Positions 1,352-22,310 of a stretch of 64,000 bases of DNA are shown here, one piece after another (the first letter of the stretch is position 1; the number at the start of each line of letters is the position of its first letter). A program made the position numbers and the translations under genes. A model generated the notes under the pieces. The model worked only from the letters and a program-made list of their open reading frames with translations. It was not told the DNA's origin and searched no databases. The DNA comes from Microscilla marina ATCC 23134. Its GTDB lineage: Bacteria; Bacteroidota; Bacteroidia; Cytophagales; Microscillaceae. Location: assembly GCF_000169175.1 (NCBI RefSeq), contig NZ_AAWS01000004.1, forward strand, positions 62,001 through 126,000, given 5' to 3'.

Positions 1352-1394
1352 AGAAAAAAAGATAAGAAGCAAAGCATCAGCTGCTTATCTTATC
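1352..1394 (-). terminator. Rho-independent terminator of the LanB gene
   Basis: A stem of AAGATAAG-AAGC with GCT-GCTTATCTT overlaps the stop codon of the minus-strand dehydratase gene. It is followed on that strand by a run of seven T (A7 on the plus strand at 1354-1360). Confidence 0.65.
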
Positions 1395-4300
1395 CTTCCA
1401 ACCTCCAATACCCCCACATCTCCTCCAGCCTTTGCCCACTGGCAAAAAAACGATTATAAAACATGTGGATGTAGCTGCTGAGCAGCGAACGGAGTTGTGT
1501 TTCGCTTGCCCCATGCTGTTGCAGGTTGGCTTTTATTTGTTGGGCAAGGGGCGCTTCCTGTTCGGTAAGTTGATCAAACAGTAGGCGGTAAGCCGGAGGC
1601 AACCAGGGAGGCAGTGCTTGCTTTGCCAATGCTTTTTTGAGGCGTTGTGCCTGGGGGTGGACATCCAACCCAAATTCGCGGCTAAAGTTTGTTTTACCTT
1701 GGCTGGTGATTTGCTGCCTGGTTTCTTCGGGGAGGTCAAAAGCCTGCAACAGGGCTTTGATGCGTTGCAGGGCAAGTGCCGATTTGAGTGTGTCGTTAGT
1801 GGCTTCGTCTTTGGCAAGTAGAGCCAAGGCGTGGCATACAAAATCACTATCCAGAGCAAACCATTCTTCGCTTAGCGCCATATTATAAGGCAGATAACGG
1901 TTCAGTTCACGTTGGTAAGTATCGGGTACATAGTGGATAATTTTCCCCTGTTGCTTTAGCCCCAGCAACTTTTGCGAAAATGCTTGCACTATCTCGCCAA
2001 ATTCTTTGGGATAATGGTTGATGTGCAGTCGCCAGCGCAAGTGGGTGCCATAGGCCTCCGGATCGGTATAGCGAATAAAAAACCACTGGTCAATGTGCCC
2101 TGAATCTCTCAACTCTTTGCTCAAAGGGTGCAGGTCTTCCGCAATAAGCCGATCGCTACCCAGGGTACCCAGGTAAATTTTAAAGTACACCCATTCGCTG
2201 CCAAAGCTAAAGTTTTTTTGTACATCTGGTACCCAGGTTTGGGCATCAAAAGCAGGCGATTGCTTGCTGCTTGGTGCAGCAGTATTAATGATAGGAAAAA
2301 TCATTTCATTGCTATAGGGCTGGCTGGGCAAGTGTTGTTCTATTACTTCTTCTAATACCAGTTCTTTACGGTCAAACACCTTTTGCAAAAATACTCCTAT
2401 GCTCAAAGGGTGGGCAAAATCAATGTAGAGCTTATTGTCTGCTTCTACCAAAAGCACCGCTTGAGGCAAACGCAATTGTTGTCTGAGCCTTTCTATTTTG
2501 TGAGTCCAGGTACTGACGGCATGCATATCTTCTTTTTTCTGCAACTGTACTGCTTCCAATGCCTTGTAGTTCACCCGCCATTGCCTGGGTGATAGAATCA
2601 GGGTACCATCATAGACCAGGCGGGGCAAATAACTCCTTTGCTGCCAGCGCTGCGCCCTAAAAAACGGGGGCAACTGGCGGTACTCTTGTTGGTATTGCAA
2701 ATCGCACAAAAACTTATAGAGCGGGTGGGCATTGTGGGCGTAGTTATGGGCATTGCTCATCCGGGGTACTACTTGTTTGTTTAGCTTACGCGAGTGCAAT
2801 ACCAAACGTTTGCCTCCATCCTGGGCACTCAACCACAAGTCAGTCACGGGTATTTGGTGAACGTCGTTGGTATTGGCACCTCCCAAGGCAATGCTATAGT
2901 CACGCAACCGGGGGCGGATGATCACATTGCCCACTCTTTGCCCTGGCAAATGGTCTATCTCGGCGTATACTACACTGTTATCATCAGGTTCTACCTGAGC
3001 AATGGTAGCACTGAGTTGCTGCTGGAGCAAGGGGCTACCGTAGCAAAACCGCCCCAACAAATTGCCCACCACGGGACCCGTGGCGTGGTACAACTGAAAA
3101 CGAAAATTACGCGGGTTATCCTGTTTGGGGTTGTGTTCCAGGTCATCGGGTGCCTGGTAAAGCAGCTTACCCATCGCCACCATTGCCGGAGGCAAAGACC
3201 TTGGTTTTTCTTTGGTTGGTAACTGGCTTGCCTTCAGACTTTGTACTTCGCCTTTGCTCAAATGTATTGCAGGTGCCCCGGTTTGTAAAGCCTCTACATA
3301 TTTTTGTTCCAGCAAGGCATCCAGCGCTGAGGTCTGTCCTGCCTTTGGGTCAGCAACTTGGGGCATTGCTCCACCTTCGCCAACCACTACACCCAACTCC
3401 TGCAAATAGGTAGGTAGCGTTGCTACCCGTTTGCCATAAGGATAACCCACCCCTGTTACCTCGTCCATTGCCAACAGCAAGGGCACGGCTTCGTTTTCGT
3501 AACGCTTAAAAAAAGCCTGGGCAAAGGTACTTAAGTCTGCTTTTGTTGTGGGCACCTCACCTACAGTGTCTATCAAAGTGGCTATTTGACGTACTAGGTG
3601 GCGGGGAACGGTTTTGCTTAGTGCTTGCCCATTTTCATCCCTAAAAGCATCTACCTGAATAAGTTCTTTTTTAGACGCAGTTTTTTCGTTGGGGTGGGCA
3701 GTGATAGCTGTCTCTTGTGCCTGATAAAAAGGCTGTTCACTCAGATAGCCTGCCAATTGTTGATAAAGCCCCAGGCTTTGAGCAGGGTCAGGCGTGGCAT
3801 CAATCAGCGCCAGCTGCCTACGAATATGATTGATGATGGCGAGGTAGCCTTGGGCAGCAGGCATTTGAGCTATGCTGGCGTGCAATTGTTCCAGGTACTC
3901 TTCACCATTCAGACTGGGATACAGTTCAGAAATAAGCAAATGATGGTTAATCAAATACTCCACAAACTCACGGCAATCTGCCTCGGTGAGTTCGGGGCCT
4001 GTCATCAGGTGGGCAATCATTTCGCCTATACGCATACCACCCGCTTGCCCGCAGGCAATAAACAACTCCCAGGCTACCTCATGGTATTCCTTCGATGAGG
4101 CAACGTGTTGCAAGGTTTGCTCATCGAAAAACGAACACAGCATATCGTCGCCATTGCGGTACAGCGTATTGTTAGGAAAGTAACGCAACTGCTCCCTTAT
4201 TTTTGGTTCGGCTTCCAGGGAGGCTCTGAGCCTCAGCAAATATACCATATCCAACCGCGACGAGGTACGCATGTTGCCAAGCTTATCCAGCGCCAGGCTG

Positions 4301-4569
4301 CTGTGTCTTTGCAAACGAAACTCGCCCACGGTAACCGCAGCAAATGTACCAAAGGGGGTACAACGATAAGCCGCCCTTGCCAAAAACATCCACAGCTTTT
4401 GCTCCAGGTTTTGCAAATCTTTGCGCTGCTTTTTATTGGGTGCAGGCAACGCTGCCAAAGCGTGCCAACGGTCGAGCTGAGCAAACAAATCGGGGGAGGC
4501 AATGTACAAGGCTTGTTGCAAGGCTGGCAGCCTATAAGCCGCTTGTAGGTGTTGGCGTACCGTATCCAC
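1390..4569 (-). pseudogene. lanB: Lantibiotic dehydratase (LanB), body, severed from its 5' end by IS66
   Basis: Class I lanthipeptide dehydratase. The family glutamylates Ser/Thr of a precursor peptide using Glu-tRNA and eliminates glutamate to give dehydroamino acids. This fragment holds almost the whole protein: the N-terminal domain motif RCTPFGTFAAVTVGEF near residues 68-83, and the C-terminal SpaB_C/thiopeptide-type domain (WVYFKIYLG, WFFIRYTDPEAYGTHLRWRLHIN, last ~270 residues). The open frame begins at a GTG directly after a TGA, and the family's RTPLLP start is missing. That start lies on the far side of the IS66 element at 6873-6981. Joining the two at the 8-bp duplication gives one uninterrupted frame of about 1,090 residues, normal for LanB. 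Only the last codons before 4561 belong to the gene; 4562-4569 is already IS sequence. It is probably inactive, although a truncated product cannot be excluded. Confidence 0.9.
4554..4561. repeat. Target site duplication, left copy
   Basis: GGCGTACC directly precedes the left end of the IS66 element and recurs immediately after its right end at 6873-6880. Eight bp is the usual duplication length for IS66-family insertions. Confidence 0.9.
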
Positions 4570-4644
4570 TCATCGGCTGGGGTATATGAAAAACGACTTG
4601 CTTGTATTTGCTTTGCATCATCAAATCACTAAACACCCAATACG

Positions 4645-4974
4645 ATGAGCAAACAATATGATCGTGCGAAGATATTTAAGATGGTGTCGGAAAGCTATGA
4701 GCTAGGACTAACTGCTGCCGAGTATTGCCGCAAGAAAAATTTTTCTTCCAAGATATTCTATCGTTACCGTCAGCAATATATAGAGGTTTATGGGGCAAAG
4801 CCAATGCCTACTACACCCATGGCTGATTTTGTGGAGTTAGCGGTAGCTCCTCCTGAAACTACTGGTTTGAGTTTGGAGGTAGGCACCCATATTCGTTTAC
4901 GTTTTGAGTCTTTGCCTGACCCTGTATATTTATCCCAACTTTTGAGTCAGCTCTCCAATGTTACACTTAAGTAG
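4645..4974 (+). CDS. tnpA: IS66 accessory protein TnpA (HTH)
   Basis: A 109-residue protein with the N-terminal helix-turn-helix typical of IS66 Orf1 (FKMVSESYELGLTAAEYCRKKNFSSKIFYRYRQQY, split here by positions 11-45). It is required with TnpB for transposition in the family, probably by binding DNA or the transposase. The start ATG is preceded by no Shine-Dalgarno. Its 3' end overlaps the tnpB start by 17 bp, which suggests coupled translation. It is complete and not visibly damaged. Confidence 0.88.
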   Translation: MSKQYDRAKIFKMVSESYELGLTAAEYCRKKNFSSKIFYRYRQQYIEVYGAKPMPTTPMADFVELAVAPPETTGLSLEVGTHIRLRFESLPDPVYLSQLLSQLSNVTLK

Positions 4975-5305
4975 CGTTCGTCATTATTATTTATATACCG
5001 AGGTATGCGATTTTCGCAAAGGCTTCGAGGGCTTGTGTAACTTGGTGATGGAGCGCTTTGGTGAATTGCTCACCAGTGGCTCAGTGTTTATATTTTTCAA
5101 TCGTCGTCGTGATCGGGTAAAGTTACTATGTTGGGAAGGAGATGGTTTTGCGATTTACTACAAGCGTTTAGAAACAGGTACTTATGAACGCCCTCAGATG
5201 AGTTGGGGTACCCGCCCACTGACTGCTTCCGAAGCTCATTTACTTTTATCAGGTATTTCTTTGAGTTCGGTGACTTATCGCAAACGTTATTTGGCAAAAG
5301 CGTAG
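4958..5305 (+). CDS. tnpB: IS66 accessory protein TnpB
   Basis: A 115-residue IS66 Orf2 protein. It has the family signature VCDFRKGFEGLCNLV near the N-terminus, followed by VFIFFNRRRDRVKLLCWEGDG and a YKRLETGTYERP stretch. The length is typical for the family. It overlaps tnpA at its 5' end and is followed by tnpC after 31 bp. The molecular role in IS66 transposition is poorly defined but the gene is conserved in the family. Confidence 0.92.
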   Translation: MLHLSSVRHYYLYTEVCDFRKGFEGLCNLVMERFGELLTSGSVFIFFNRRRDRVKLLCWEGDGFAIYYKRLETGTYERPQMSWGTRPLTASEAHLLLSGISLSSVTYRKRYLAKA

Positions 5306-5336
5306 ATATTTCGGTTAGATTTAATAGTTTTGCCCT

Positions 5337-6844
5337 ATGCAGGAACAAAAACCTACATATGAGGCACTTGCCAAAGAAAATGCTGATTTGAAGGCGCTTA
5401 TCTCAAACCAAAATCTAGAGATGACTGAACTCAAAGCCCAGCTTGATGAACTACTTCGTTTGACCTATGACACCAAGTCAGAGTCTCGTGGTAGCAACTA
5501 CACCCCTGCAAAAAAAAAGCGCAAGTTGAAAATCCCGAACTTGCATTCGGGGAAGAAGTAGTAGATACGGTTAAGTCCGCTTCACCTCCCAAAAAAACAT
5601 CTAATAAACTTTTAAATGCTGAGGGCAAGTTCCCTGAGCACTTACCACGCAAAGAAGTGGTGATCACTCCTGATGAACCCATCACCGAAGATATGCGTCG
5701 TTTGCCTGACCGAATCACCGAGGTACTCGATTATGTACCTGGTCATTTGGTGGTGATTCGCTACATTCGTCATTGTTACATCAAAGATGTAGCAGACGGT
5801 TTACATTCTAAAAAAATAATGGCTGCTAAACCTGAACGACCCATCAATAGGTGTTTGGCAGATGCAGCACTACTTGCGCAAATTATTTGTGACAAATACT
5901 GTGACCACTTGCCTTTATATCGCCAACTTCAACGCTTTGAGCGGTCAGGAGTTCAGATAGGCTCGTCTACGTTCAATTCTTGGGTTGAAAAAATCGCCCA
6001 ATTACTCACTCCATTGTACGATTTACTACAAGAAGAGGTGCTTTCAAGCAATTATGTCAGAATAGACGAGACCCCCATCAAAGTACTTGACCGAGCAAAG
6101 GAAAAAAACATCCACCAAGGCTATTTATGGTACTATCAATCCTCTAAGGCCTGTTTTATCCAATATCACCGCTCGCGAGGCAGTGAACCTCCTGATGAAA
6201 TGCTTCAAAATTTCCAAGGAAAAATCCAGACTGATGGTTATGGAGTCTATGATCATTTTGAAGAAAATGAACATATCAAGTTATTCGGATGCTGGGCACA
6301 CGCGAGGCGCAAAATATTCGAAGTCAGCAAGGCACATCCTTCCCTGACCGAAGCTCCTCTGGAGTTCATCGGAGAACTATATCTTATCGAAAAGCAGATT
6401 AAAAAACAAGGATTGGATGTAGCAGAAGCAAGCTTGCTACGCCAACAAAAAGCAGGCACTCCCTTGATGAAGCTCAAGCACTGGATGTATAAAACCAAGC
6501 CCAAGCTCAAACCCAAGATGAAGCTTTATAAAGCGATTGAATACATCCAAAAACGTTGGAAAAAATTGATTCGCTACCTCTGGCATGGAGAGGTGCAGAT
6601 TGATAACAACCTGATAGAAAACGCCATTCGTCCTGCTGCACTGGGGCGCAAAAACTACCTTTTTGCTGGCTCACAAGATGCCGCAGAACGCACCGCACTC
6701 TTCTACTCTTTGATTGGTTCTTGCAAAATGGCAGGGGTAAATCCACTAGAGTGGCTTACGGATGTGATCAAAAACATCAATAACCAACCCATCCAAAAAC
6801 TACATCTTTTGTTGCCTAGTAACTGGAAATCGCAACAAGGTTAG
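5337..6844 (+). CDS. tnpC: IS66 transposase TnpC, in two frames across an A9 tract
   Basis: DDE transposase of IS66. The first frame starts at ATG 5337 and encodes the N-terminal coiled coil (EALAKENADLKALIS and following), closing at 5561. The second frame runs on to 6844 and contains the zinc-binding region, the catalytic YVRIDETP and KIQTDGYGVYD aspartates, and the glutamate motif NNLIENAIRPAALGRKNYLF. The sequence in the second frame upstream of 5657 (AQVENPELAFGEEVV, SPPKKTSNKLL, PEHLPRKE) is clearly family-like. The frames therefore join at A9 (5510-5518) followed by GCG. A -1 slip on A-AAA-AAG gives exactly the needed frame; otherwise one A was lost. The joined protein would have about 502 residues, normal for TnpC. 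Confidence 0.85.
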
Positions 6845-6872
6845 GGTAGCACCCCTTTGAATGAGGGGATAC

Positions 6873-6981
6873 GGCGTACCTGCTCGATGTCTTGGGCAAC
6901 TCCCACCGGAGGCTCCAGGTAGCTGCGCTCCAGCAATGGAGTACGCAGTACATAAAAATTACCTGGTTCGAATGTATTCAT
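6873..6981 (-). pseudogene. lanB: Lantibiotic dehydratase, detached 5' end
   Basis: From ATG at 6981 the minus strand encodes MNTFEPGNFYVLRTPLLERS, ending with DIEQVRR near the target duplication. YVLRTPLLE is the hallmark N-terminal motif of LanB dehydratases. After Q34-V35-R36 the reading enters the IS66 end and stops a few codons later (near 6843). The first copy of GGTACGCC on the minus strand joins this fragment to the body at 4561 without a frame change. The promoter of the gene therefore lies above 6981 and is now separated from the main coding body. Confidence 0.9.
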
Positions 6982-7029: not shown

Positions 7030-7345
7030 CTCATTCGTAATTTCTAAAGCTACGTTTTCTTATTGTCCCCAATAAAGCGAGCCTGACCAGCATGTACAAA
7101 ACATAAGTCCAAGTGGTGTGGTGCCAAGGTGGGAGCATGGTAATACTGAGCTAATAATGCCATCGGTGTTTTTACAATGCACCTTAAAAGTGTAAGTACT
7201 CTCACGCAGGTGAATATATTCTTTCTTTTACTTAATACTCCATTTCAACCAATCCTCATCGAGCCTCATCAGTTGGTGACTATACAAATTTCGCTCATAC
7301 ACCGTCCAACTGTTGTTGGTATAAAGATATCACGATGGCAGGGTA
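7030..7345 (-). pseudogene. Relic of a Y_Y_Y-domain sensor protein
   Basis: The minus strand encodes a decayed copy of the membrane-proximal part of the sensor at 9403-12402. LYSHQLMRLDEDWLKWS, then a TAA stop, then KKEYIHLRESTYTFKVHCKN and, in another frame, PPWHHTTWTYVLYMLV match the intact gene's RYSYKLEGLEKSW, KKEYTNLREGTYTFQVRCKN and PPWYRTWWAYTLYLLI. At least one stop and one frameshift are present. It indicates that a second regulator of this type once lay just upstream of lanB. Confidence 0.75.
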
Positions 7346-8800: not shown

Positions 8801-9145
8801 TTATTCTTTCTTTACTTCTGCTTCCAGCACCTTCAACTCCCTTAATTTGGCTGCATGCAATCCTATCATTGTATGACTTTTACTAAGTAAACGAGCGGTT
8901 TCCTTGGTACTTTTGCCTCCTTTGAAACAGTGAGCTGCTCGCCACTCGTTGGGAGTAATAATTTCGTCGAGCAAAATCGAGTCTAAGTGTAATACAAAAT
9001 CTGGATGATGCTTCCGAACATGTGTCTGGATAGTAATGTAAGTATTAAGCGTTTCAATTTCACTCCTTAACAGACTCAGACCTGCTTCCAACCCTTCTTT
9101 TTGGTATACTTCTTTTATTTTGAGTAATTTAAATGATACGTGCAT
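8801..9145 (-). CDS. Stand-alone HTH output-domain protein
   Basis: A 114-residue protein homologous to the last ~100 residues of the sensor encoded by 9403-12402. EAGLSLLRSEIETLN aligns with EVGLHFLENELNTAG, and the VLHLDSILLDEIITPNEWRAAHCFKGGKSTKETARLL region aligns with the sensor's C-terminal DNA-binding segment. The C-terminal part is a predicted helix-turn-helix of the LuxR-like type. It has no membrane segment and no receiver domain. It may act as a free competitor or partner of the sensor. Located 61 bp from the downstream serine hydrolase on the same strand. Confidence 0.6.
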   Translation of the reverse strand: MHVSFKLLKIKEVYQKEGLEAGLSLLRSEIETLNTYITIQTHVRKHHPDFVLHLDSILLDEIITPNEWRAAHCFKGGKSTKETARLLSKSHTMIGLHAAKLRELKVLEAEVKKE

Positions 9146-9402: not shown

Positions 9403-12402
9403 TTATAATAAACCTGCCTTGCGCAAGCGAGAACCATACGAATAAATGGTAGAAGGCTTGACATCCAGCAGTGCCGAAATTTCGTTGGCAGATTTACCCA
9501 GTTTCAAACATTGTCCTACCTTCCATTGGGTATAGGTAATGTCTTCATCCAATAGTACTTTGTCCAGCTTGGCTATAAACTCAGGGTAAGCCTCGCGTAC
9601 TTCTGCCTGAATGCTGGCCATTTTGCCCGCAGTATTGAGTTCATTTTCCAGAAAATGGAGCCCTACCTCCAGTCCACGACTCTTAAATATGTCTATCACC
9701 TCTACAAAACGCTCGTTAGAGTCAGATACCCGCTGCACATAGTATTTGAGTTTATCTTCTTGTTCTTTTTTGATTTGGGCATTGGCATCCTCTAAAGCCT
9801 CGTTGGTGGTTTGTAGTTCCAGGTTGGTCTTGTGCAGTGCTTGGTTGGTGGTCTTTAGTTCCTTTGCCGTAACTTGTAGCTGAGCATTGGCAGCGTTGAG
9901 CGACTCATTGGTTACTTTTAACTGCGTTGCCTGTTGGGTAATTTCGGCTTTTTGTCCGCTGATTTCCTCAGTACGCAAAGCCACCGTTTGCTCCAGTTCC
10001 CGGTTGCGTTTTCTGAGCTGCCTGCTCCGATATTGGTTATAGCTCATACTTGCACCCACCGTCAGGCTTACTCCTATCAATAGATACAGCGTATAAGCCC
10101 ACCAAGTACGGTACCAGGGAGGTAAAATAGTAAAGGTGTAAGTATCTACCGAGCTAATGGTACCATACACGTTTTTGCAGCGTACCTGGAAGGTATAAGT
10201 GCCTTCTCGTAGGTTAGTATATTCCTTCTTTTGTTCTTTGCTCCAGTTCGACCAAGATTTTTCTAGCCCTTCGAGTTTGTAACTGTACCTATTTGCTTCA
10301 GTGGCCACATAATAATTGCTGGCAAATTTGAGGGTAATGCTATTTGTTCCATAGGGTATTTTCTCTACTTTGTGTTGTTGTGTAATCCCCTGATAAATTA
10401 TTGAATCCTTATAGTTATTTTCAACCAAATCACCTTGGATAGTATCTGATATGTTTTGCTTGAGAGATACTTCCCTGATATAACTATTGAATTTATGTGC
10501 CGGAATATTTCCCTTGTTTAAGTTACAGGTGATGATTTTCTTTTGTGTAATGATTTGAATATGGTTAGAGTCAAGTTTTTTTACGTCAGTGGTCACAGTG
10601 CTGCCAATTCGCTTAAAATCTCTGGTTTCAAAAGTATACCGACCAGCTTGATTCTTTGATAATACCCCTGGGAAACTCCTTGATTTATCTCCACCTGAAT
10701 AAACTGGAGTTAAAAAAAAACGATTGTTTGCCAAAGGCTTGGCAAAAGAAAATTTTTGGTGATAAATACCTTGTTCATTGAGGGGGAGATTTTGGAGGTT
10801 TGCAGTAAGGCAAGTAATTTTTTCGTGGTTATCTACTTTAAATAGCCCCAATGCATTGACAATGTAAACGCGGTTACCTTTCTCAAAAAAACTAAAACTA
10901 TAGCGGGTTTTGGCAGGGAAGGCTAATTTTCTTCTGCTTAAAACTGATTTGAAATCTGACGAGAGCCGAATTTGATAGACCTCATTTACCGTAGAATAGT
11001 AAATCACTCCATCAGTAGAAATAAAGGTATTATAAATGCCTCCATCTGTGAGGCGTATTGTATTAATCACTTTATATTCTTTATTTAGGACTTGCAGAGT
11101 TTGAGTGCCTGCCAAAAGGAATACTTGCTTGGGCAGATAATTTACAACTCTCCTAAACTTTCCATTTAATATTTTTTTACGAAAGCTACCTACAGTATCA
11201 ATTTTATACAGCCCTTTTGAGGTACTAACCAGAAAGCGGTTGTTGTCTAGTGTAACATCAGAAACGAAACCATCAAATATGATCGTTTGAGATCTTTTGC
11301 TATTATTAATTTCAATCTTATGCTCACTTTTCAATAAATACACTTCATAGTTGCCCAATCGTTTACTTTTTCTGATTCCCTTATTATTGGGCTGGAATGT
11401 GAATTTTTCATTTAATTCAATGTATAAAACACCGTTGTTGGTAGTCACCCAAATATTTCCTTGTAAATCGAATGCAAAGTCATTGGCAGCTAATTGTTTG
11501 AACGTGTACTGAAAACCAATTTCATTATTTGCAAGATTAAGTTTAAGCAACAATTCATTGGTTAAGATCACCAAATATTTTTTTTGTTGCTTCACCTGAA
11601 ATTTTGCGCCGCCTTTGATTAAAGCAGAAATGCGAGGAATCTCTCGTATATCAGAGGTACCCGTTTTGAGATAAAACTTTTTTTCGCTGGAAATTAATAC
11701 CAACAAACTGTTTTCAAACTCTTTTAAAAAAATAGGCTGATATTGTTGGATTAAAGAAGGTGGGGCAACGAGTTTTAACCAGTGATTGCCCGAAAGCTTA
11801 AATAAATCACCCTTGGCAGAAGTAATCAAAATATCTTGATTGATCTTCAAAGAGGAAAAGCTAACCGTATTGTTTATAGGAGGAACATAGCTTTTTTGCC
11901 CCGTTTGTTGATTATAAACAATACACCCCGAAGAAGCACCCAAGAAAAATATCCGCTCATCTTTTTGATAAATATTTAATAGCCGACCTCCTAATTTTTC
12001 CTTGTTTTCTTTAAAACTTATAATTTCCTTAAACCGAAACCGATCATTCTTCAAAACAAAAAAGCCGATTTTACTAAGACCTCCTACATAATACCTGTGA
12101 GCATTTTTTTCATCTCTTTTGAGTTTATTAAATCTGGGGTGCTTCGGTTTATCCATAAGTTTCATATCCCAGGCATAACCGTTAAAAACGTTAATTCCGT
12201 ACCCGGTAGCAACCATGACCAAACCATCGTTGGTAACTTCTATATCATGACAATCTCTGGCTACTCGTTCTTTTCTTGTAAAATGTTTAGTAAACTCCTC
12301 TAATCTACTCTGAGATTTAACTGGGAGTGCTATGGATAACATCAGAGTCAAAATAAGTGATGTGATTCTGAAGGTGTATATAGTATCAGAACTCATTTTC
12401 AT
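9403..12402 (-). CDS. Propeller/Y_Y_Y sensor with C-terminal HTH
   Basis: A 999-residue one-component regulator. Signal peptide or anchor at about 10-30; a long periplasmic beta-propeller-like region follows (about 40-680). A Y_Y_Y (triple tyrosine) domain with NRYSYKLEGLEKSWSNWS and EGTYTFQVRCKN comes next. Then come a membrane helix (YTLYLLIGVSLTVGASM), a long coiled coil rich in repeated LKxTNxxLxxxNxxL, and a C-terminal helix-turn-helix (TQWKVGQCLKLGKSANEISALL). It lacks kinase and receiver domains. The family resembles hybrid two-component regulators in which an outside signal is passed directly to DNA binding. The start overlaps the end of the upstream hydrolase gene by 17 bp, so the two are co-transcribed. 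It is likely the regulator of the RiPP cluster. Confidence 0.8.
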   Translation of the reverse strand: MKMSSDTIYTFRITSLILTLMLSIALPVKSQSRLEEFTKHFTRKERVARDCHDIEVTNDGLVMVATGYGINVFNGYAWDMKLMDKPKHPRFNKLKRDEKNAHRYYVGGLSKIGFFVLKNDRFRFKEIISFKENKEKLGGRLLNIYQKDERIFFLGASSGCIVYNQQTGQKSYVPPINNTVSFSSLKINQDILITSAKGDLFKLSGNHWLKLVAPPSLIQQYQPIFLKEFENSLLVLISSEKKFYLKTGTSDIREIPRISALIKGGAKFQVKQQKKYLVILTNELLLKLNLANNEIGFQYTFKQLAANDFAFDLQGNIWVTTNNGVLYIELNEKFTFQPNNKGIRKSKRLGNYEVYLLKSEHKIEINNSKRSQTIIFDGFVSDVTLDNNRFLVSTSKGLYKIDTVGSFRKKILNGKFRRVVNYLPKQVFLLAGTQTLQVLNKEYKVINTIRLTDGGIYNTFISTDGVIYYSTVNEVYQIRLSSDFKSVLSRRKLAFPAKTRYSFSFFEKGNRVYIVNALGLFKVDNHEKITCLTANLQNLPLNEQGIYHQKFSFAKPLANNRFFLTPVYSGGDKSRSFPGVLSKNQAGRYTFETRDFKRIGSTVTTDVKKLDSNHIQIITQKKIITCNLNKGNIPAHKFNSYIREVSLKQNISDTIQGDLVENNYKDSIIYQGITQQHKVEKIPYGTNSITLKFASNYYVATEANRYSYKLEGLEKSWSNWSKEQKKEYTNLREGTYTFQVRCKNVYGTISSVDTYTFTILPPWYRTWWAYTLYLLIGVSLTVGASMSYNQYRSRQLRKRNRELEQTVALRTEEISGQKAEITQQATQLKVTNESLNAANAQLQVTAKELKTTNQALHKTNLELQTTNEALEDANAQIKKEQEDKLKYYVQRVSDSNERFVEVIDIFKSRGLEVGLHFLENELNTAGKMASIQAEVREAYPEFIAKLDKVLLDEDITYTQWKVGQCLKLGKSANEISALLDVKPSTIYSYGSRLRKAGLL

Positions 12403-13666
12403 TTAGATTTATCAGTTGCCCAAAATCTCCATTGACAGCAAATTTAGTAATAAGCCAGCTTAGTTTGTCAATCAGTTTATAAGGAGTACCCTTGGGATCA
12501 GAATAAATATTAGAGGCCATCATCACCCCAAATGGCATTTTTTTATTGAAGATAAAATAAGATATATAAGTAGCTACTTTCCCACTATGACCTATACCGA
12601 TGTTTTTTTTCTCTACTCTTACCCTAAATCCATTGACACGGTAGAACTTTGTGCCTTTATTTTTTCTGAGAAATACCACATTTTGATTATCAATAATATC
12701 TAAATCAGCATCAAACAAGTATTTCTGTAAGGTTGCACGTTTGAGTACTTTTTCTGCCCTTTTATTGCTTTTTCTAAATCGCAGAAAACTCATAAACTTC
12801 ACCATATCATTGGGCGATGCTCTAATACCGCCATTGGCAGCCAATATGCCTTGCGAATAATTTGAAATATGAGAAAGCTTTTCTCTTTTGCCATCTTTGT
12901 CTTGGTCATAATAACCATAGTAGGCGGCAAATTTCTTCATCATCTTTTTAGAGAGGGGACCATAGCTGGTACTTTTCATGCGCAAAGGCTTAAGAATGTT
13001 TTGCTTAATGTAGAATTTAAACTTGATGCCCGACACCTTCTCAATGACCAAGCCAAGCAGTGAATATCCCATATTGGAATACTCATACTTTTCTCCCGCT
13101 GGAAAGGTTTGTTCGGCCAACTCTAGGTAAGGTAAAAACTCTTCATTTTCGGCTCGCCTAAATTTCTTTTCTTCCTTTTTTATTTTTGCTGCAACAGTTC
13201 TGAATGCTTTAGTGAGGCTGAGACCGCTGTTATGGTTAATTAAGTGATGAATTTTAACCTGATTGATTTTTGCAAAGTCCCCCGTTTTTTTGCCCAGGTT
13301 GGGAAAATAATGGGTGATGGAGTCGGTCAGCTTGAGTTGACCTTTTTCTACTAATTGTAAGATGGCTACTGTAGTAAACAACTTAGATACTGACCCCCAC
13401 ATGTGTACCATGTGACGGTTCATTTTGACTTTATTCTTAATGTTGGCATAGCCCATTTGCTTTTCAGAAATAATTTTTCCATTATAGACCAATGCTGTAT
13501 AAAACGAAAGGTCAGGTTGTTTTTTCTTGGCCAAGGAAACAAACCGATCCAGTTTATTCCAATTGTCCAGTAAAGTTCTTTTTTCGCTTTTGCTCTTTTG
13601 AGCAAGACAAGGCGAAAAAAGATACATAGAAACAATAATAAATATGGTGGTTTTTAGGTGATTCAT
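12386..13666 (-). CDS. Secreted beta-lactamase-fold serine hydrolase (paralogue 2)
   Basis: A 426-residue exported serine hydrolase, paralogous along its length to 7459-8739. Signal peptide TTIFIIVSMYLFSPCLAQ at the N-terminus. SxxK is in WGSVSKLFTTVAILQL, YxN in YEYSNMGYSLLG, and the third motif is GHSGKVATY. It sits 12 bp after lanC and overlaps the sensor gene by 17 bp, so lanC, hydrolase and sensor form one transcription unit. Beta-lactamase-fold hydrolases act on D-Ala-containing peptides or esters. A leader protease or resistance role in the RiPP system is a hypothesis drawn from position, not shown by the sequence. Confidence 0.87.
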   Translation of the reverse strand: MNHLKTTIFIIVSMYLFSPCLAQKSKSEKRTLLDNWNKLDRFVSLAKKKQPDLSFYTALVYNGKIISEKQMGYANIKNKVKMNRHMVHMWGSVSKLFTTVAILQLVEKGQLKLTDSITHYFPNLGKKTGDFAKINQVKIHHLINHNSGLSLTKAFRTVAAKIKKEEKKFRRAENEEFLPYLELAEQTFPAGEKYEYSNMGYSLLGLVIEKVSGIKFKFYIKQNILKPLRMKSTSYGPLSKKMMKKFAAYYGYYDQDKDGKREKLSHISNYSQGILAANGGIRASPNDMVKFMSFLRFRKSNKRAEKVLKRATLQKYLFDADLDIIDNQNVVFLRKNKGTKFYRVNGFRVRVEKKNIGIGHSGKVATYISYFIFNKKMPFGVMMASNIYSDPKGTPYKLIDKLSWLITKFAVNGDFGQLINLNENEF

Positions 13667-13678
13667 GAATATGTTTTT

Positions 13679-14941
13679 TTAAAATAAAAACTTCAACCAA
13701 TTTAGCTGTTGTATCTGTATAATGTTCTGTTCGACCAATAAAAAGCTTAAAAGGGACAGACACTGCCCAGTAGCGCCAAATAATAAACCACTAGATTGTC
13801 CCCATTCCTGATGCCCTGTAGTTGGGTTTGTACCATAGTGACTCCAGCCAAGAAATTTTTCATCCCAATCTGCTTGACTAAGGCTTTCATTGAGCCAATA
13901 AAGGTACGCATCTTTTGCTTCGGGTAGTTGGGTATGTTTGTACAGCAAATAGAATAAAAAAAATGCCCCAAACGACCCATGACAAAGTGTGGTGTCGAGT
14001 CTGGTAGCATCTTGGTGTATGCCTGAGTTAAGTTTTCTTACTTTGGCGGTTTTTTTTATGATTGAATTGATAATATCATCAATTTTTTGTGACTTCAAGC
14101 ATTTGTTGGCGGCTATCAGAGAAAAAACGATTCCCAAATCACCTTTACACCAAGCAAGTGAATATTGATTTGTGTTTAATTTATTTTCATCAACTGATAG
14201 TTTATTGGCGAATGTAAAGTGATTGTGGTCACTAGATTTGCGATTAATTAAAAAACTACAGGCCAAAGAAAGGCAAGTCTGAATTTTTTGTTTGAGATCA
14301 GCATCTATAAAGTCATAATTGTATGCTTTAGCCAAAAAATTAATAATACTCGCTAACCCGTGGGCTAATCCTGTATTGATGATACCTTCAGGGGTAGCGA
14401 TGGTTTCCCAAAAAATTTCTGCTTCACCATTGGTATACTTTGCGTTGTCAACAACATACTCAATGCCTTTAATTACATTTGCTTCTATCAAAGACCTGAC
14501 ATCATCCTCAAAAAAATCTCTTACCTCTGTGAGGGCAATAAGTTTCCCAATTAACCCATGCAAAAAATCGAGGTTACAGTTCTGAAAGTCATAAGGGATT
14601 GAGTCAAGTACCAAATGCTGCAAAACTTTCATTACTTCCTGTATTTCCTGCTTATCGAGTTGGCCTTCTTGAATGAGAGTACTCAGTGTTAACAAAACCC
14701 CTGAGTATCCTGAAAAGCTTGCGTTACCGTCAAGGGTTTGGAGGTTATTAATGCAATGGGTTATAGAGTCATACAAACGATCCTGATTAACAGGAGCCAA
14801 GCCACCTTTGTTTAACAAAGAAAATAACAATGCCTGACCTAATGAACCTCTATATACATTTATTTGTGTATTTGCCTCTAAACTTTCTAACAATATATCT
14901 TTTACTAACCTTGCTGTTACTTGATTAAGATTTTTGTGCAT
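13679..14941 (-). CDS. lanC: Lanthionine synthetase C-like cyclase (LanC)
   Basis: A 420-residue zinc-dependent cyclase that adds cysteine thiols to dehydroalanine/dehydrobutyrine in lanthipeptide precursors. The double-helix-barrel repeat motifs are visible: GYSGVLLTL, GLAHGLASIINFL (191-203), WCKGDLGIVFSL with Cys265, and CHGSFGAFFLF with Cys320-His321. Cys265, Cys320 and His321 are the expected zinc ligands and all are present. It lies 55 bp downstream of the precursor gene and 12 bp upstream of a serine hydrolase, all on the minus strand. Its presence identifies the cluster as class I (separate LanB and LanC). Confidence 0.9.
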   Translation of the reverse strand: MHKNLNQVTARLVKDILLESLEANTQINVYRGSLGQALLFSLLNKGGLAPVNQDRLYDSITHCINNLQTLDGNASFSGYSGVLLTLSTLIQEGQLDKQEIQEVMKVLQHLVLDSIPYDFQNCNLDFLHGLIGKLIALTEVRDFFEDDVRSLIEANVIKGIEYVVDNAKYTNGEAEIFWETIATPEGIINTGLAHGLASIINFLAKAYNYDFIDADLKQKIQTCLSLACSFLINRKSSDHNHFTFANKLSVDENKLNTNQYSLAWCKGDLGIVFSLIAANKCLKSQKIDDIINSIIKKTAKVRKLNSGIHQDATRLDTTLCHGSFGAFFLFYLLYKHTQLPEAKDAYLYWLNESLSQADWDEKFLGWSHYGTNPTTGHQEWGQSSGLLFGATGQCLSLLSFLLVEQNIIQIQQLNWLKFLF

Positions 14942-14996
14942 AGTTTAAAAATATTAATAGGTCAGAACTGAAAAAGCTCTGACCTAGATATAGGAA

Positions 14997-15173
14997 TTAA
15001 ACTATATGAGTTCTTTCGGTCTCTTTACCAGCTTGCGGATTACAATCACCACAACCATCATAAAAAGATGCCCCACCTGCTGTACCACCTTTAACATTAT
15101 GCATGTTCATAGGTTTGATGGTTAAAGCTTTGCTCCAATTTTCTTTAATCGTTAGTTTATTTTTCTTCTTCAT
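14997..15173 (-). CDS. Lanthipeptide-type RiPP precursor peptide (58 aa)
   Basis: A short gene from ATG 15173 to TAA 14997 encoding 58 residues. The leader is basic and Lys/Asn-rich (MKKKNKLTIKENWSKALTIK) and ends in NVKGG at residues 26-30, a double-glycine-type cleavage motif. The 28-residue core holds two cysteines (Cys41 and Cys44 in DGCGDC) and Ser/Thr at 31, 36, 52 and 55. Position just upstream of lanC, leader style and Cys/Ser/Thr content all match Bacteroidota class I lanthipeptide precursors. The number of rings cannot exceed two. With lanB disrupted in this strain, dehydration may not occur. No transporter gene is seen in the window. Confidence 0.8.
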   Translation of the reverse strand: MKKKNKLTIKENWSKALTIKPMNMHNVKGGTAGGASFYDGCGDCNPQAGKETERTHIV

Positions 15174-16335: not shown

Positions 16336-17559
16336 TTAATCAACAAAATCACTGTAATTCAACAGTGTATAGGTGATTTTACCGTGCCCTGATTGGACGT
16401 GTTTCCTGAAAAATGGTAACAGTTTTTTAAACTCAGGCTCTGGAGCGCCTTGACATCCTTGACTCCAGGGAACTCCAGGTGCATTCACTGTACGGCTTGC
16501 TATTCCATTGTTACTCATGCGATGCGTGTTTGTTCCGTAAAATCCTTTATATACTTTTCCTCTATCCAATTTTAAGTCTTTAGTGTTATCTCGGTAATAA
16601 TCCATAGAACCCGTTTGATACAAATAAGGATACTTGAGCCATAAATTTTGATAGTTTTTAGAATCCATAAATGTATAAACATTTTCGTATTGCTTTTCTA
16701 TTATAGTAGCTGTTCCTGCAACTCCAGTCTGAGTTTCAACTGCATTTAATGGATCAAGGACACCTCCATGAGCAAGCGTACCAGCGGTAGTTGTCCAAGG
16801 GATTTCTATTATTTTAGGTTTTCCTTTTATATGTTGAATAGTGAATAGTTTATCACTGAATTTATTATCATAGGTTTCATCCATCCTAATTGCTATCAAG
16901 TTGACTTTCCCTTCTTCTTCATAAAACTTATATCCCTTTCGTTTTAGTGTATCTTTTATCCCACTGAGCGAAAAGTCAGGTTTTACCCGTTTTTTGACTT
17001 TTTTGGGTGTTTTCACCTTTTTAGGCGTATTCTTTTTATTTACCTTTTTCCCCTCAAAAATCGGTGGTTGATACACTTTGGTATTATCCGCTTGTTGTTC
17101 CATCATTTTCAGTTCAAGTGCCCGTAATTTGTCGTTTATTTTAGGCGACGTTTTTTGGGGAGGTGGTTTTTGATTACCAAGATTAACAGTAGAAGGTACT
17201 TTAAGCATTTGCCCGGGAGCAATTAAAGCCTTAACGCTCCCTAAATTATTCAACTTAACTATTTTCTGCACTAGTTGGGCAATCTCGGTTATAGGAGCCA
17301 AGGGGTTATATTTTTTGGCAATTGTCCAAAGTCCTTCTCCCGCTTGTACAGTGTGTTGGCTTATTTTAGGTGCTTTCTTTCCTAAAATTCGTTCTGGACT
17401 GGCTGCTACCAAGGTTCCATAAGGTGGCTGTTGTTTCTGGGTTGGCCACGAGGTTTCTTTTCCCATCAGGCGTTCCAGGCTTGGCTCAACGATTCGTGGT
17501 TGTATTGATCCCTCGTGTTGGTGTTGTGGATCGTGTTCGGCATTGGCTTGGCTTGACAT
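16336..17559 (-). CDS. LysM protein with L,D-transpeptidase-like C-terminus and shared leader
   Basis: A 407-residue protein without a signal peptide. Residues 1-12 (MSSQANAEHDPQ) are nearly identical to the start of the 602-residue protein at 20392-22200. A LysM domain covers about 68-121 (HTVQAGEGLWTIAKKYNP, IAPGQMLKVP). A basic, Lys/Pro-rich linker follows. The C-terminal domain has a histidine (NTHRMSNNG) followed by APGVPWSQGCQGAP with Cys369, resembling the H...SxGC pattern of YkuD L,D-transpeptidases, although the canonical SHGC is altered to SQGC. It probably acts on peptidoglycan. Location beside an injection-system ATPase and the shared leader suggest cargo or a structural component of such a machine. 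Confidence 0.65.
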   Translation of the reverse strand: MSSQANAEHDPQHQHEGSIQPRIVEPSLERLMGKETSWPTQKQQPPYGTLVAASPERILGKKAPKISQHTVQAGEGLWTIAKKYNPLAPITEIAQLVQKIVKLNNLGSVKALIAPGQMLKVPSTVNLGNQKPPPQKTSPKINDKLRALELKMMEQQADNTKVYQPPIFEGKKVNKKNTPKKVKTPKKVKKRVKPDFSLSGIKDTLKRKGYKFYEEEGKVNLIAIRMDETYDNKFSDKLFTIQHIKGKPKIIEIPWTTTAGTLAHGGVLDPLNAVETQTGVAGTATIIEKQYENVYTFMDSKNYQNLWLKYPYLYQTGSMDYYRDNTKDLKLDRGKVYKGFYGTNTHRMSNNGIASRTVNAPGVPWSQGCQGAPEPEFKKLLPFFRKHVQSGHGKITYTLLNYSDFVD

Positions 17560-17669
17560 AGTAAATAAGGTTAGAATAATATAAAATTTTTAAGAAGTGG
17601 GTTAAGTGCGATTGGGCACTTTTTCCGAGGCAAGAGTAGGTGTTTTGGCAGATAAATTCCAAATCTTAA

Positions 17670-17690
17670 CCTTGATCAACCCTTGATTTG
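17670..17690 (-). promoter_or_regulatory. Conserved 21-bp upstream element
   Basis: Plus-strand CCTTGAT-N5-CTTGATTTG, 111 bp from the start codon of the 17559 gene. The same element lies exactly 111 bp from the start at 22200, and the stretch between element and start is also conserved (GTGCGATTGGGCACTTT, GGCAAGAGTAGG). Two TTGAT half-sites are spaced about one helical turn apart, as in an operator. Confidence 0.6.
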
Positions 17691-17827
17691 CCTGACACAG
17701 CAGCTTATATTTTAAATTTATATAGTACATTTACATAAGTATTGCATCAAACTGGAACGAGCCAAAAGCACGTACTAGCAGAGGGCGAATGCTAAACACT
17801 GTCTACCGTGGCTTGCCCAATGACGCA

Positions 17828-19225
17828 CTAACTACCTTCAGCCCCCTCATAAGCATATTGTTTTTGGAACAAATGAGCCGTGTTGTACTCAAAATAGCCC
17901 CGCTCACAACCATACCAATGAAGGTACTGGCGCATTTCTTCCGCAGAAATGCTATTCGTGCCCTTGGCGGTAGCCTGTAGTACACAGTAAGCATAAAACT
18001 GCTCTATCCAGGCGGCACTCACATTGGCGGCTTCGGCCAGTTCCCGAAACCGGGCTTGGCTAATGGCGGGGTCTAGCTGCAAATAACCTGGTTTTTCAAA
18101 GAAATGCTGCCATAGCTGGGCGCGGGTATACTTATCAGGGGTTTGGAAAGTAATCCAGGAATGAAACCGTCGCTGAAAGGCTTGATCGATGGCAGTCGCA
18201 TGATTGGTGGCCAGAAAAATCATTCCGGGGTATTCTTCCAGTTTATACAGCAAGTAGCTTACCTCCTGATTGGCATACCGTTCGTTGCTGCTGCTGCTCC
18301 CTTCGCTACGCTTGCCAAACAAGGCATCGCCTTCGTCAAAAAAGAGAATCCAGTCCTGGGCTTCGGCTATTTCAAAAATGCGCCTTAGCTTTTTACTGGT
18401 TTCGCCCACGTATTTGTCTACAATATTAGAGATATCGATGCGGTACACAGGCTTGTTGGCAGCTTGCCCCAGTAGAGCAGCGGTCATCGTTTTCCCGGTA
18501 CCAGAGGGACCTTCCATGAGTAAACGATATCCCTGGCGTTGGTTTCCTTGGGTAGCTTGTTGTACCTGGTGATAGTATTGTACCCATTTACAGGCTTGAG
18601 CCAATAGGGTGTTGGTTTCTTCGTCCACAATCAAGTCGTCCCAGGTTTTGGTGGTCGTGAGCAGGGTGGCTGGGAAGTCGGAGGAGTATTGCACAGGCAA
18701 AGCGCGTTCAGTGACTAATTGATGTAATACGTTGGAGCTTAATTGGAGAACTGTGCCCAAGGTAGGAAGTAATTCATTAGTAGGCCATTCTAATATGCCT
18801 GATGTACGCAAGCGGGTGTCAGCACTCAATAATTGCCATGTTTTCTTCTGTTGGGTTGGGTCGTTTCCTGCTATCAGAAACAGCACCGTACCCACTGTAG
18901 CCTGAAGGTAAGGAGTATGGGGAAGTTTTAATAGCCCAAATTGCCCCAAATCTAATTTTGCCTTATTTTCCGCAAAAGCCTGCCATAGCGTTGGATATAC
19001 CTGGTTGGCTAAAGCACCAAGTATGACCAATCGTTCCACAATGCTAAATGGAGCAATCATTTGCTGGTAATCTTTTTGAAACTCTTCCAGAGGAATGCTC
19101 AGGGGCTCAGCCAAGGTAGCTTCTTCTTTTTGGGAGTTACTCCCTTCCTGATCGAGTCGGAAACAGATGTAGTCTTGTAACCATTTCAAGTCTTGGGAGT
19201 AGTCTTTTAGCATAATTGTTTGCAT
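17828..19225 (-). CDS. AAA+ ATPase, contractile-injection-system type
   Basis: A 465-residue protein with an N-terminal helical domain and one AAA+ module. Walker A GPSGTGKT at 239-246, Walker B ILFFDEGDALFG with Asp-Glu at 297-298, sensor ATNHATAID, and arginine finger region QAFQRRFHSW. This is the ATPase type found in extracellular contractile injection system loci (Afp15/Pvc15) and related secreted-particle islands. I chose ATG 19225; a TTG at 19237 would overlap the LRR gene's TGA. It is third in a probable operon of leader protein, LRR protein and ATPase. A decayed duplicate of its 3' end lies at 15478-15760. Confidence 0.85.
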   Translation of the reverse strand: MQTIMLKDYSQDLKWLQDYICFRLDQEGSNSQKEEATLAEPLSIPLEEFQKDYQQMIAPFSIVERLVILGALANQVYPTLWQAFAENKAKLDLGQFGLLKLPHTPYLQATVGTVLFLIAGNDPTQQKKTWQLLSADTRLRTSGILEWPTNELLPTLGTVLQLSSNVLHQLVTERALPVQYSSDFPATLLTTTKTWDDLIVDEETNTLLAQACKWVQYYHQVQQATQGNQRQGYRLLMEGPSGTGKTMTAALLGQAANKPVYRIDISNIVDKYVGETSKKLRRIFEIAEAQDWILFFDEGDALFGKRSEGSSSSNERYANQEVSYLLYKLEEYPGMIFLATNHATAIDQAFQRRFHSWITFQTPDKYTRAQLWQHFFEKPGYLQLDPAISQARFRELAEAANVSAAWIEQFYAYCVLQATAKGTNSISAEEMRQYLHWYGCERGYFEYNTAHLFQKQYAYEGAEGS

Positions 19226-19233
19226 ATCTGTAG

Positions 19234-20358
19234 TCAATATTTAATTTTAGCGTTGGGCAAAGCTTCTTGCAATGCCTTTTTATCGGTTGTTGACAAGTGT
19301 AAAGGGTTACCTGATAAATTCAAGTGTTTCAAAGATTTGAGTTTATAAACACAATCTGGGATTTTAGTAAAACGATTGTTAGCTATGTTTAAACTTCTGA
19401 TGATGCGTAGCTTGCCCAATTCGATGGGTAAGTCACTCAATTGATTGTTTTTCAACCCCAAATACACCAAAGGTGATTTGCCTAAGATGGCTGGAATATA
19501 CGTGAGTTGATTATCACTCAAATCCAAGTCATTTAGCCTGGAAAAATGAGGCAGATCATTGGGCAACGCCTTGATTTTATTTTGCTGTAATTCCAGCGTG
19601 CCCAATCTTTGGCGTGCCTGGTAGGTGGCTTTTGGGAAATGGGTCAATTGGTTTGCTCTTAGGTCGAGGATATACAATGACTTAGGCAAACAATTAGGGG
19701 GAATGGATTGAATTTGATTATGACCAAGATTCAATACATTGAGTTCAGACATTTTACCCATGCTGGCGGGCAGAGTTTTGAGTTGGTTATGGTCAAGGTC
19801 TAATTTTTCTAACTGACCTAAATTACCAATTTCAACAGGAAGTACCCTTAACTGATTCTCGCCTAAGTTTAATACCCACAATCGAGCTAATTGACCAATC
19901 TCTTTGGGAAGGGATTTGATTTGGTTTTGCGTTAATGCCAGTCGCAATAGCTTTTTTAGTTGACCAATTTCAGGGGGTATGGTGGTTAGTTCATTATTTG
20001 GGAGGTAAAGACGAGAGGTGGAGTCTAGTTGCCCAATTTCGGGAGGCAAGGTTTTCAATCCTACTCCCAGAAGGTTCCATTCACTCACTCTTTTGAGCTT
20101 TACAATGTCAGGTGGTAAGGTTGTTAAGTTCTGGCTATGGTCCCCTATCACTTCTTTTACCTGGGTGGCTTCCGCAAGGTTAGTAGGCCAATGTTGGAAT
20201 TCAGTCCCATCTCTAAGTTCTAGAGTGGGAGTATGTATATTTTCTAATGTCCAGGTTTTGGGAGACGGCTTGGGGGCAGATGGTTGACTTATGACAATGG
20301 CCACTACCAACACCACCACCAGGCTCAATAAAAATAAAGTTTTGTGGGCAAGTTTCAT
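19234..20358 (-). CDS. Membrane-anchored leucine-rich-repeat protein
   Basis: A 374-residue protein. An N-terminal hydrophobic segment (LFLLSLVVVLVVAIVIS) acts as an anchor or signal, followed by a short proline-rich spacer. About eleven 23-residue leucine-rich repeats follow (pattern LPxEIGQLxxLxxLxLxxNQL). LRRs are protein-binding scaffolds. It sits 33 bp after the leader-carrying gene and abuts the ATPase gene, so it is likely part of the same operon. No catalytic domain is seen. Confidence 0.85.
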   Translation of the reverse strand: MKLAHKTLFLLSLVVVLVVAIVISQPSAPKPSPKTWTLENIHTPTLELRDGTEFQHWPTNLAEATQVKEVIGDHSQNLTTLPPDIVKLKRVSEWNLLGVGLKTLPPEIGQLDSTSRLYLPNNELTTIPPEIGQLKKLLRLALTQNQIKSLPKEIGQLARLWVLNLGENQLRVLPVEIGNLGQLEKLDLDHNQLKTLPASMGKMSELNVLNLGHNQIQSIPPNCLPKSLYILDLRANQLTHFPKATYQARQRLGTLELQQNKIKALPNDLPHFSRLNDLDLSDNQLTYIPAILGKSPLVYLGLKNNQLSDLPIELGKLRIIRSLNIANNRFTKIPDCVYKLKSLKHLNLSGNPLHLSTTDKKALQEALPNAKIKY

Positions 20359-20391
20359 ATTTGAATAGCTTTTTATAAAATAACTGATTGC

Positions 20392-22200: not shown

Positions 22201-22310
22201 AGTAAATAAGGTTAGAATAACATAATATTTCTCAGAAGTGGCTCCAGTGCGATTGGGCACTTTCGCTGCGGCAAGAGTAGGCATTTTGGCGGATAAATTC
22301 CAAGTGAATA

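What the first reader, a model, noticed from the sequence alone, without database searches (positions are those of the whole stretch)
1390..6981. A complete IS66 element has cut a lantibiotic dehydratase gene, and the gene can be rebuilt exactly
The element spans 4562-6872 with an 8-bp target duplication (GGCGTACC at 4554 and 6873) and inverted ends starting GTATCC. On the minus strand the far flank encodes FYVLRTPLLE, the LanB start, and the near flank continues VRQHLQAAY. Removing the IS and one duplicate leaves one open frame of about 1,090 codons. The inactivation therefore looks recent and the RiPP product may be lost or altered in this strain.
Basis: partly seen in the sequence, partly recalled or inferred. 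Interest (0 to 1): 0.85.

Follow-up and report, generated by a model that had tools for sequence, protein, structure and literature searches.

The report
Jumping gene splits peptide-modifying enzyme gene
A mobile element has cut one of several near-identical genes for an enzyme that modifies small peptides in a marine bacterium; intact sister copies confirm the cut and might stand in for the broken one.

Summary
An IS66-family element (4562-6872) with an exact 8-bp duplication sits after codon 36 of a class I lanthipeptide dehydratase gene (lanB, minus strand, 6981 to 1390); the joined flanks form one open frame of 1090 codons. Five of five close homologues (three in this genome, two in another Microscilla genome) are uninterrupted, carry nearly the same N-terminus and hold the target octamer once, exact in two, one base different in three. 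The severed 34 residues include an arginine invariant in 16 of 16 aligned LanBs, aligned with NisB R14; NisB R14A impairs dehydration and secretion (PMC4341554, passages). This copy is probably inactive. 'Product lost' does not follow: three intact LanBs, 85-89% identical, exist in clusters whose precursors share the leader start KKNKLTIKxNW. Across clusters LanB stays constant while core peptide, cyclase, hydrolase and a regulator's sensor part change as a block with sharp edges; the LanBs are mosaics of one another. Against buffering: 6 of 6 clusters have a lanB of their own.

The parts
4562..6872 (+). IS66-family insertion sequence, 2311 bp
   Evidence: 8-bp duplication and terminal inverted repeats; TnpB PF05717 104 bits, TnpC PF03050 299 bits, NF033517 362 bits over its cut-off of 180
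4554..4561 (.). target-site duplication, copy 1 (GGCGTACC)
   Evidence: present once at the homologous site in five homologues, exact in C16 and C84, one base different in C9, L049 and L050
6873..6880 (.). target-site duplication, copy 2 (GGCGTACC)
4645..4974 (+). tnpA of the element
   Evidence: HTH_Tnp_1 PF01527 26.8 bits (cut-off 24.1), NF047593 29.1 bits (cut-off 28)
4958..5305 (+). tnpB of the element
   Evidence: PF05717, NF033819
5337..6844 (+). tnpC of the element in two frames: 5337-5561, and a second frame open from after the stop at 5492 to 6844, overlapping at a run of nine A (5510-5518, A AAA AAG)
   Evidence: the other long copy in the genome has the same run
6873..6981 (-). 5' piece of lanB, 36 codons plus 1 base, start ATG at 6981; encodes the FYVLRTPLLE motif
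   Evidence: aligned with five intact homologues
1390..4561 (-). 3' piece of lanB, residues 35-1090 (Lant_dehydr_N and Lant_dehydr_C); with 8 element bases it reads as an ORF of 1059 aa, 1390-4569, starting GTG in the element's end
   Evidence: PF04738 419 bits, PF14028 179 bits
7144..7311 (-). remnant of a Y_Y_Y regulator gene between lanB and the 7459-8739 gene
   Evidence: 168 nt at 76-81% identity with the regulator genes of the three sister clusters; 152 nt (7160-7311) at 80% with that of L049
7459..8739 (-). serine hydrolase (beta-lactamase fold) of the cluster
   Evidence: PF00144 191 bits; counterpart at the same place in L050, 56% identical
8801..9145 (-). 114-aa protein of the cluster (helix-turn-helix-like by eye only)
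   Evidence: 97% identical to the counterpart in L050; no Pfam family over a cut-off
9403..12402 (-). Y_Y_Y regulator; N-terminal sensor part variable between clusters, C-terminal part much less so
   Evidence: PF07495; sliding identity
12386..13666 (-). serine hydrolase (beta-lactamase fold)
   Evidence: PF00144 170 bits
13679..14941 (-). lanC cyclase, open frame, with WCKG and LCHG motifs
   Evidence: PF05147 111 bits; motifs read (their role as zinc ligands is recalled)
14997..15173 (-). candidate precursor peptide (lanA), 58 aa, GG at the leader end, core with 2 Cys and 4 Ser/Thr
   Evidence: leader-start pattern found without mismatch in 4 places of the genome, one per cluster; no Pfam or NCBIfam match

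Best explanation
An IS66-family element transposed into codons 34-37 of the dehydratase gene of one of four parallel class I lanthipeptide clusters in a Microscilla genome, duplicating 8 bp. Shown: exact insertion, exact empty sites in homologues, absence of the first 34 residues from the remaining ORF. Inferred: no working dehydratase is made from this gene, because the upstream piece ends after 46 codons inside the element and the downstream piece lacks the N-terminal segment with the invariant arginine (NisB R14). Inferred, less certain: the cluster's precursor can still be dehydrated by one or more of the three intact LanBs elsewhere in the genome, because the leader start and the LanBs are the constant parts of a cassette-like family whose core peptide, cyclase, hydrolase and sensor are exchanged as a block. 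The confidence given is for insertion plus inactivation; I put buffering in trans at about 0.45.
For: Insertion. Identity. Intact homologues with nearly the same N-terminus: C9, C16, C84 in the genome and L049, L050 in another Microscilla genome; L050 has the window's gene order beside lanB. Arginine 13: invariant in 16 of 16 rows of A2, aligned with NisB residue 14 (position counted from the printed alignment); NisB R14A gives a spread of 0-7 dehydrations and no secretion (PMC4341554, passages). Buffering: LanB identities 84.8, 89.4 and 86.9% to C9, C16, C84; approximate leader-binding region 71, 76 and 75 of 81 identical (borders estimated); leader start identical at 11, 11 and 13 of 15 positions; the KKNKLTIK pattern occurs without mismatch 4 times in the genome, once per cluster. 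Constant/variable blocks. Mosaic LanBs: longest shared run of polymorphic sites for W/C84 is 78, shuffle maximum 21, 0 of 2000.
Against: All 6 clusters found in two genomes have a lanB of their own, 5 uninterrupted and this one cut, which is not what free sharing in trans would favour. Nothing shows that any of these clusters is expressed. A truncated LanB started at the GTG in the element's end could keep some activity: the NisB paper says R14A reduces but does not abolish dehydration. Cyclases are only 29-31% identical between the window and the other clusters, so a foreign LanB might not fit the window's LanC. The cassette picture is not uniform: the upstream hydrolase of C84 is only 42-43% identical to those of the other three clusters that have it, and the regulator's C-terminal end and the small protein before lanB come in different types (W and L050 against the rest).
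Confidence: 0.85

Rival explanations
1. The insertion simply kills this cluster: no LanB in trans reaches its precursor, the peptide is made unmodified or not at all, and the remaining genes are on the way to decay.
For: The IS removes an invariant residue. Every cluster seen has its own lanB. The cyclases are very different, which would favour cognate LanB-LanC pairs.
Against: The precursor, LanC and the 1056 codons of the 3' piece of lanB are all open. LanBs and leader starts are nearly the same in all clusters. No excess of amino-acid changes in this copy (10 N: 18 S against 61: 187, p = 0.25, low power).
Confidence: 0.4
2. The gene still works as an N-terminally shortened LanB of 1059 aa, translated from the GTG that the element's end supplies, with transcription from inside the element.
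For: The ORF 1390-4569 runs in frame from the element into residues 35-1090 and keeps both Pfam domains almost whole, because the Pfam model starts downstream of the lost part.
Against: The lost part holds R13, invariant in 16 of 16. No match to a Bacteroidota-type promoter pattern (motif recalled) lies in the element; the 6 matches in the window are near the chance mean of 4.5. Other promoter types and ribosome-binding sites were not tested.
Confidence: 0.08
3. The mosaic, disrupted copy is an assembly artefact of a draft genome with four similar lanB genes.
For: Draft of 135 contigs; runs of up to 286 identical bases between copies could mislead an assembler.
Against: The insertion lies well inside a contig (window = C4:62001-126000), with an exact 8-bp duplication and matching terminal repeats, which misassembly would not make; the other long copy of the element is on another contig (C56).
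Confidence: 0.03

Closest known systems
IS66 family insertion sequences
   Same: tnpA-tnpB-tnpC order, TnpB and DDE TnpC domains, 8-bp target duplication (reported for IS66 in PMC6778807, passage)
   Different: ends GTATCC (the family's usual GTAA is recalled, not looked up); tnpC in two frames overlapping at A AAA AAG
NisB and other class I LanB dehydratases (4wd9 NisB; 9g04 and 5ehk, which I take to be MadB and MibB from chain titles, lengths and recall)
   Same: glutamylation and elimination domains on one chain; profile match to all three; arginine in line with NisB R14
   Different: this copy is cut after codon 36; in Microscilla the gene belongs to a mosaic family of similar paralogues
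Bacteroidota class I lanthipeptides, pinensin group
   Same: class I LanB + LanC, GG leader end (PMC7268733 reports GG leaders for Bacteroidetes class I precursors; passage)
   Different: pinensin LanB is encoded as two polypeptides (PMC7268733, passage); here it is one full-length gene cut by an element. The published leader motif LxLxKx5L is similar to, but not matched exactly by, LTIKxNWxKxL (compared by eye)
Loss of a lantibiotic locus through IS elements (Bifidobacterium longum, IS30; PMC2430713, passages)
   Same: mobile elements removing lantibiotic capacity
   Different: there a deletion of the whole locus between two IS30 elements; here one insertion in one enzyme gene, the other cluster genes open

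Membership tests
IS66 family | 8-bp target duplication | tested here: met
   GGCGTACC twice, once in each of five homologues
IS66 family | tnpA, tnpB, tnpC with IS66 domains | tested here: met
   (TnpA only just over its cut-offs)
IS66 family | terminal inverted repeats starting GTAA (recalled) | tested here: inconclusive
   ends are GTATCC, 11 of 12 paired; the family consensus was not looked up
IS66 family | TnpC from one open frame (usual in the family by recall; not strictly defining) | tested here: not met
   two frames overlapping at A9. A 45%-identical relative has one long frame (492 aa), though its first 42 residues did not align. A -1 frameshift signal is possible but not shown: downstream fold z = -0.71
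class I lanthipeptide dehydratase LanB | Lant_dehydr_N and Lant_dehydr_C on one chain | tested here: met
   419 and 179 bits
class I lanthipeptide dehydratase LanB | intact N-terminal segment with the R14-equivalent | tested here: not met
   severed by the element; present in the joined frame and in the homologues
class I lanthipeptide dehydratase LanB | glutamyl-tRNA-dependent dehydration activity | not testable with these tools
   needs an assay
class I lanthipeptide gene cluster | precursor with leader and Cys/Ser/Thr core, LanB, LanC | tested here: met
   58-aa candidate precursor, LanC PF05147, LanB; the precursor matches no family model
class I lanthipeptide gene cluster | dedicated transporter and protease genes | tested here: inconclusive
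   none among the 19 ORFs of 1-29661 scanned against Pfam; small and unscanned ORFs remain
pinensin group | split LanB encoded as two genes | tested here: not met
   one gene in five of five uninterrupted close homologues

The most novel reading that the evidence does not exclude
Microscilla keeps its lanthipeptide clusters as constant/variable cassettes: a constant leader start, regulator output end and promiscuous dehydratase flank an exchangeable block of core peptide, cyclase, hydrolase and sensor. The constant dehydratases recombine with each other and serve any precursor, so the copy cut by the IS66 element is buffered in trans and could be restored in nature by gene conversion from a sister copy.
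Probability: 0.35. Interest if true: 0.6.

Novelty: new member of a known kind. Interest (0 to 1): 0.42.

Why it matters
An IS in an enzyme gene is ordinary. What raises this case is a natural knock-out in one of four parallel clusters with three intact, closely similar dehydratases in the same cell: a ready-made test of whether class I dehydratases serve foreign precursors through a shared leader. The constant/variable block structure, with breakpoints inside the precursor leader and inside the regulator gene, suggests a route by which new peptide products are swapped into a fixed processing frame. If that holds, writing off a cluster because its lanB is broken would be wrong here.

Tried and rejected
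Truncated but working LanB: disfavoured (lost invariant arginine; no promoter-pattern match in the element). Programmed -1 frameshift in tnpC: the slippery run A AAA AAG is present, but the downstream fold is not better than shuffles (z = -0.71, 45 of 200 shuffles at least as good), and the second long copy is identical over about 720 nt there, so it is no independent test. Dating the insertion from that copy: not possible, since the two are identical over about 720 nt and about 89-90% alike after that, a mosaic (the second figure is my arithmetic). Dating from N/S in lanB: no signal. phmmer with one LanB did not align the N-terminus to NisB; a 16-row profile did. Precursor family models: no match over a cut-off for 4 of 4 precursors; one weak NCBIfam match (TIGR04149, 13.1 bits, cut-off 25) for C16. 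Papers: 'Microscilla marina' + lanthipeptide gave 1 paper; insertion sequence + lantibiotic dehydratase + transposase + interrupted gave 0; at least 3 of lantibiotic, insertion sequence, dehydratase, 'inactivated by insertion' gave 15; lanthipeptide + gene conversion gave 3; in-trans and cross-talk terms gave 58, of which 12 were listed. In these listings I saw no title or start of abstract that describes this insertion or the cassette structure; any claim of absence from print rests on that alone. The gene-conversion test shuffles the order of variable sites and does not correct for rate differences along the gene. Relatives searched with the 3' piece of LanB: 8 of 57 genomes match, and only the window's own genome and G001 at 80% or more; a scan of genome contigs confirmed 4 loci of 176 candidate stretches.
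Full report
WHAT IS THERE. The window holds a lanB gene on the minus strand, start at 6981 and stop at 1390, split by a 2311-bp element at 4562-6872. The octamer GGCGTACC stands at 4554-4561 and 6873-6880, and the element's ends pair at 11 of the first 12 positions. The 5' piece covers 36 codons plus one base. Translated as it stands it runs into the element and ends after 46 codons; the 3' piece reads as an ORF of 1059 aa whose first three residues come from the element's end and the junction. Left out of the count, the element and one octamer leave 1090 codons without a stop. The element carries TnpA, TnpB and TnpC of the IS66 family.

INDEPENDENT PROOF. The window's genome (9.77 Mb, 135 contigs) has five LanBs. 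Three, on C9, C16 and C84, are 85-89% identical to the joined window protein; the fifth, on C45, is 29% identical. A second genome of the genus (G001) holds two more. Proteins with the same starts and lengths lie in named records of an uncultured Microscilla sp., contigs NODE_129 and NODE_182, against C129 and C182 of G001, hence my placement of the window in Microscilla. That it is M. marina is recalled from the genome size and comes from no call. All five close homologues are uninterrupted and begin (M/V)NTFEPG(N/D)FYVLRTPLLERSYL. At the insertion point C16 and C84 have GGTACGCC and C9, L049 and L050 have GGTGCGCC, once each. L050 is the best positional counterpart: it has the same 114-aa gene (97%) and a hydrolase (56%) next to lanB.

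WHY THIS COPY IS PROBABLY DEAD. The severed segment contains R13. In an alignment of 16 uninterrupted LanBs from the two Microscilla genomes and other genomes of the order it is one of the invariant columns, and a profile of that alignment places it on residue 14 of NisB (position counted from the printed alignment). In NisB, R14A gave a spread of 0-7 dehydrations and no secretion, and the authors state that dehydration is reduced, not abolished (PMC4341554, passages read). So a shortened protein could in principle keep some activity. lanB is the last large minus-strand gene of the cluster before the plus-strand HNH gene at 42-1019, so I expect no polar effect on other cluster genes.

WHY THE PRODUCT NEED NOT BE LOST. 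Each of the four clusters has one LanC and one candidate precursor with the shared leader start. The precursors share KKNKLTIKxNW and differ in the core; the eight-residue pattern occurs without mismatch in four places in the genome, all at these precursors (allowing two mismatches, 18 places against 7 for the backward-read control). LanBs are 84-91% identical across the six clusters of two genomes, whereas the cyclases are 26-46% identical with one exception (C16/L049, 84%). In the approximate leader-binding region of LanB the window matches C9, C16 and C84 at 71, 76 and 75 of 81 residues (borders estimated and recalled NisB numbering). A sister dehydratase acting on the window precursor is therefore plausible. 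Against it, 6 of 6 clusters in two genomes have their own lanB, this one cut, and nothing shows expression.

A CONSTANT/VARIABLE ARRANGEMENT. Between C9 and C16, DNA similarity covers the upstream flank and the first 42 bases of lanA, vanishes for about 4.9 kb (rest of lanA, lanC, hydrolase, most of the Y_Y_Y regulator) and returns in about the last 840 bases of the regulator gene, through the 125-aa gene and lanB (one stray 124-nt match between hydrolase genes aside). Inside the regulator protein, identity in 50-column windows jumps from 9-33% to 76-100%. W and L050 show the same step (12-38%, then 88-100%). C16 and L049, from two genomes, match over 11 kb at 87%, so one block type is shared between species. 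The picture is not uniform: the upstream hydrolase of C84 is only 42-43% identical to those of C9, C16 and L049, the last windows of the regulator are 63-68% identical between C84 and C9/C16 and 19-38% between W or L050 and the others, and W and L050 have a different small protein (29-33%) before lanB. LanBs are mosaics: the longest runs of shared polymorphic sites are 33, 30 and 78 for W with C9, C16 and C84, with 0 of 2000 shuffles reaching any of them; the other pairs gave 14 (0 of 2000), 15 (2 of 2000) and 56 (0 of 2000). Sharp edges favour block exchange and gene conversion over gradual divergence, but rate differences along the genes were not modelled.

AGE. The exact octamers, the open 3' piece and the unremarkable N:S counts (10:18 in the window copy; 33:89, 12:74 and 16:24 in C9, C16 and C84) fit a young insertion; none dates it. 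The other long element copy (C56) is identical over about 720 bases and about 89-90% afterwards, so it cannot date the insertion either. In the second Microscilla genome the element's DNA gave 10 matches, the longest 151 bases at 82%.

VERDICT. The finding is real and precise. As a kind of event it is ordinary: an IS in an enzyme gene. Its setting, a knock-out within a family of mosaic, possibly interchangeable dehydratases in exchangeable clusters, makes it worth an experiment. Papers: only passages of PMC4341554, PMC12241602, PMC2430713, PMC11811420, PMC12328550, PMC7268733 and PMC6778807 were read; all others were seen as search listings. PMC11811420 reports an IS66-family element 106 bp downstream of lanC in nisin O-like clusters, a neighbouring but different situation.

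Noticed in passing
L029, L030, L031, L049 (sister clusters) and window 9403-15173: Lanthipeptide clusters with fairly constant ends (leader start, regulator C-terminus, LanB) around an exchangeable block (core, LanC, hydrolase, sensor), with breakpoints inside lanA and inside the regulator gene.
   Followed up: partly
window 5510-5519: tnpC of the IS66 element is split in two frames at a run of nine A (A AAA AAG); the second long genomic copy has the same sequence there. Programmed frameshift or shared defect, undecided.
   Followed up: partly
L033:1679-6569: The other long copy of the element (contig C56) is itself split inside tnpC by about 4.9 kb that holds two ORFs (2299-4032, 4482-6410) that look by eye like group II intron reverse transcriptases with HNH ends; no family search was run on them.
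   Followed up: no
window 7144-7311: A 168-bp remnant of a Y_Y_Y regulator gene lies between lanB and the neighbouring hydrolase, a trace of an earlier rearrangement.
   Followed up: no
window 16336-23208: Upstream of the cluster: LysM protein, AAA ATPase, leucine-rich repeat protein and a Pvc16_N protein, which suggests genes of an extracellular contractile injection system; by eye an AAA-like ORF also lies upstream of the C9 cluster (L029 16216-17001).
   Followed up: no
L032:4504-7506: A fifth, divergent LanB (29% identical) on contig C45; no LanC family hit of the genome lies on that contig. Its neighbours look like hydrolases by eye.
   Followed up: no
G000:C24:85527-85619: A 31-residue match (71%) to the LanB C-terminus, possibly a relic of another lanB copy.
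   Followed up: no
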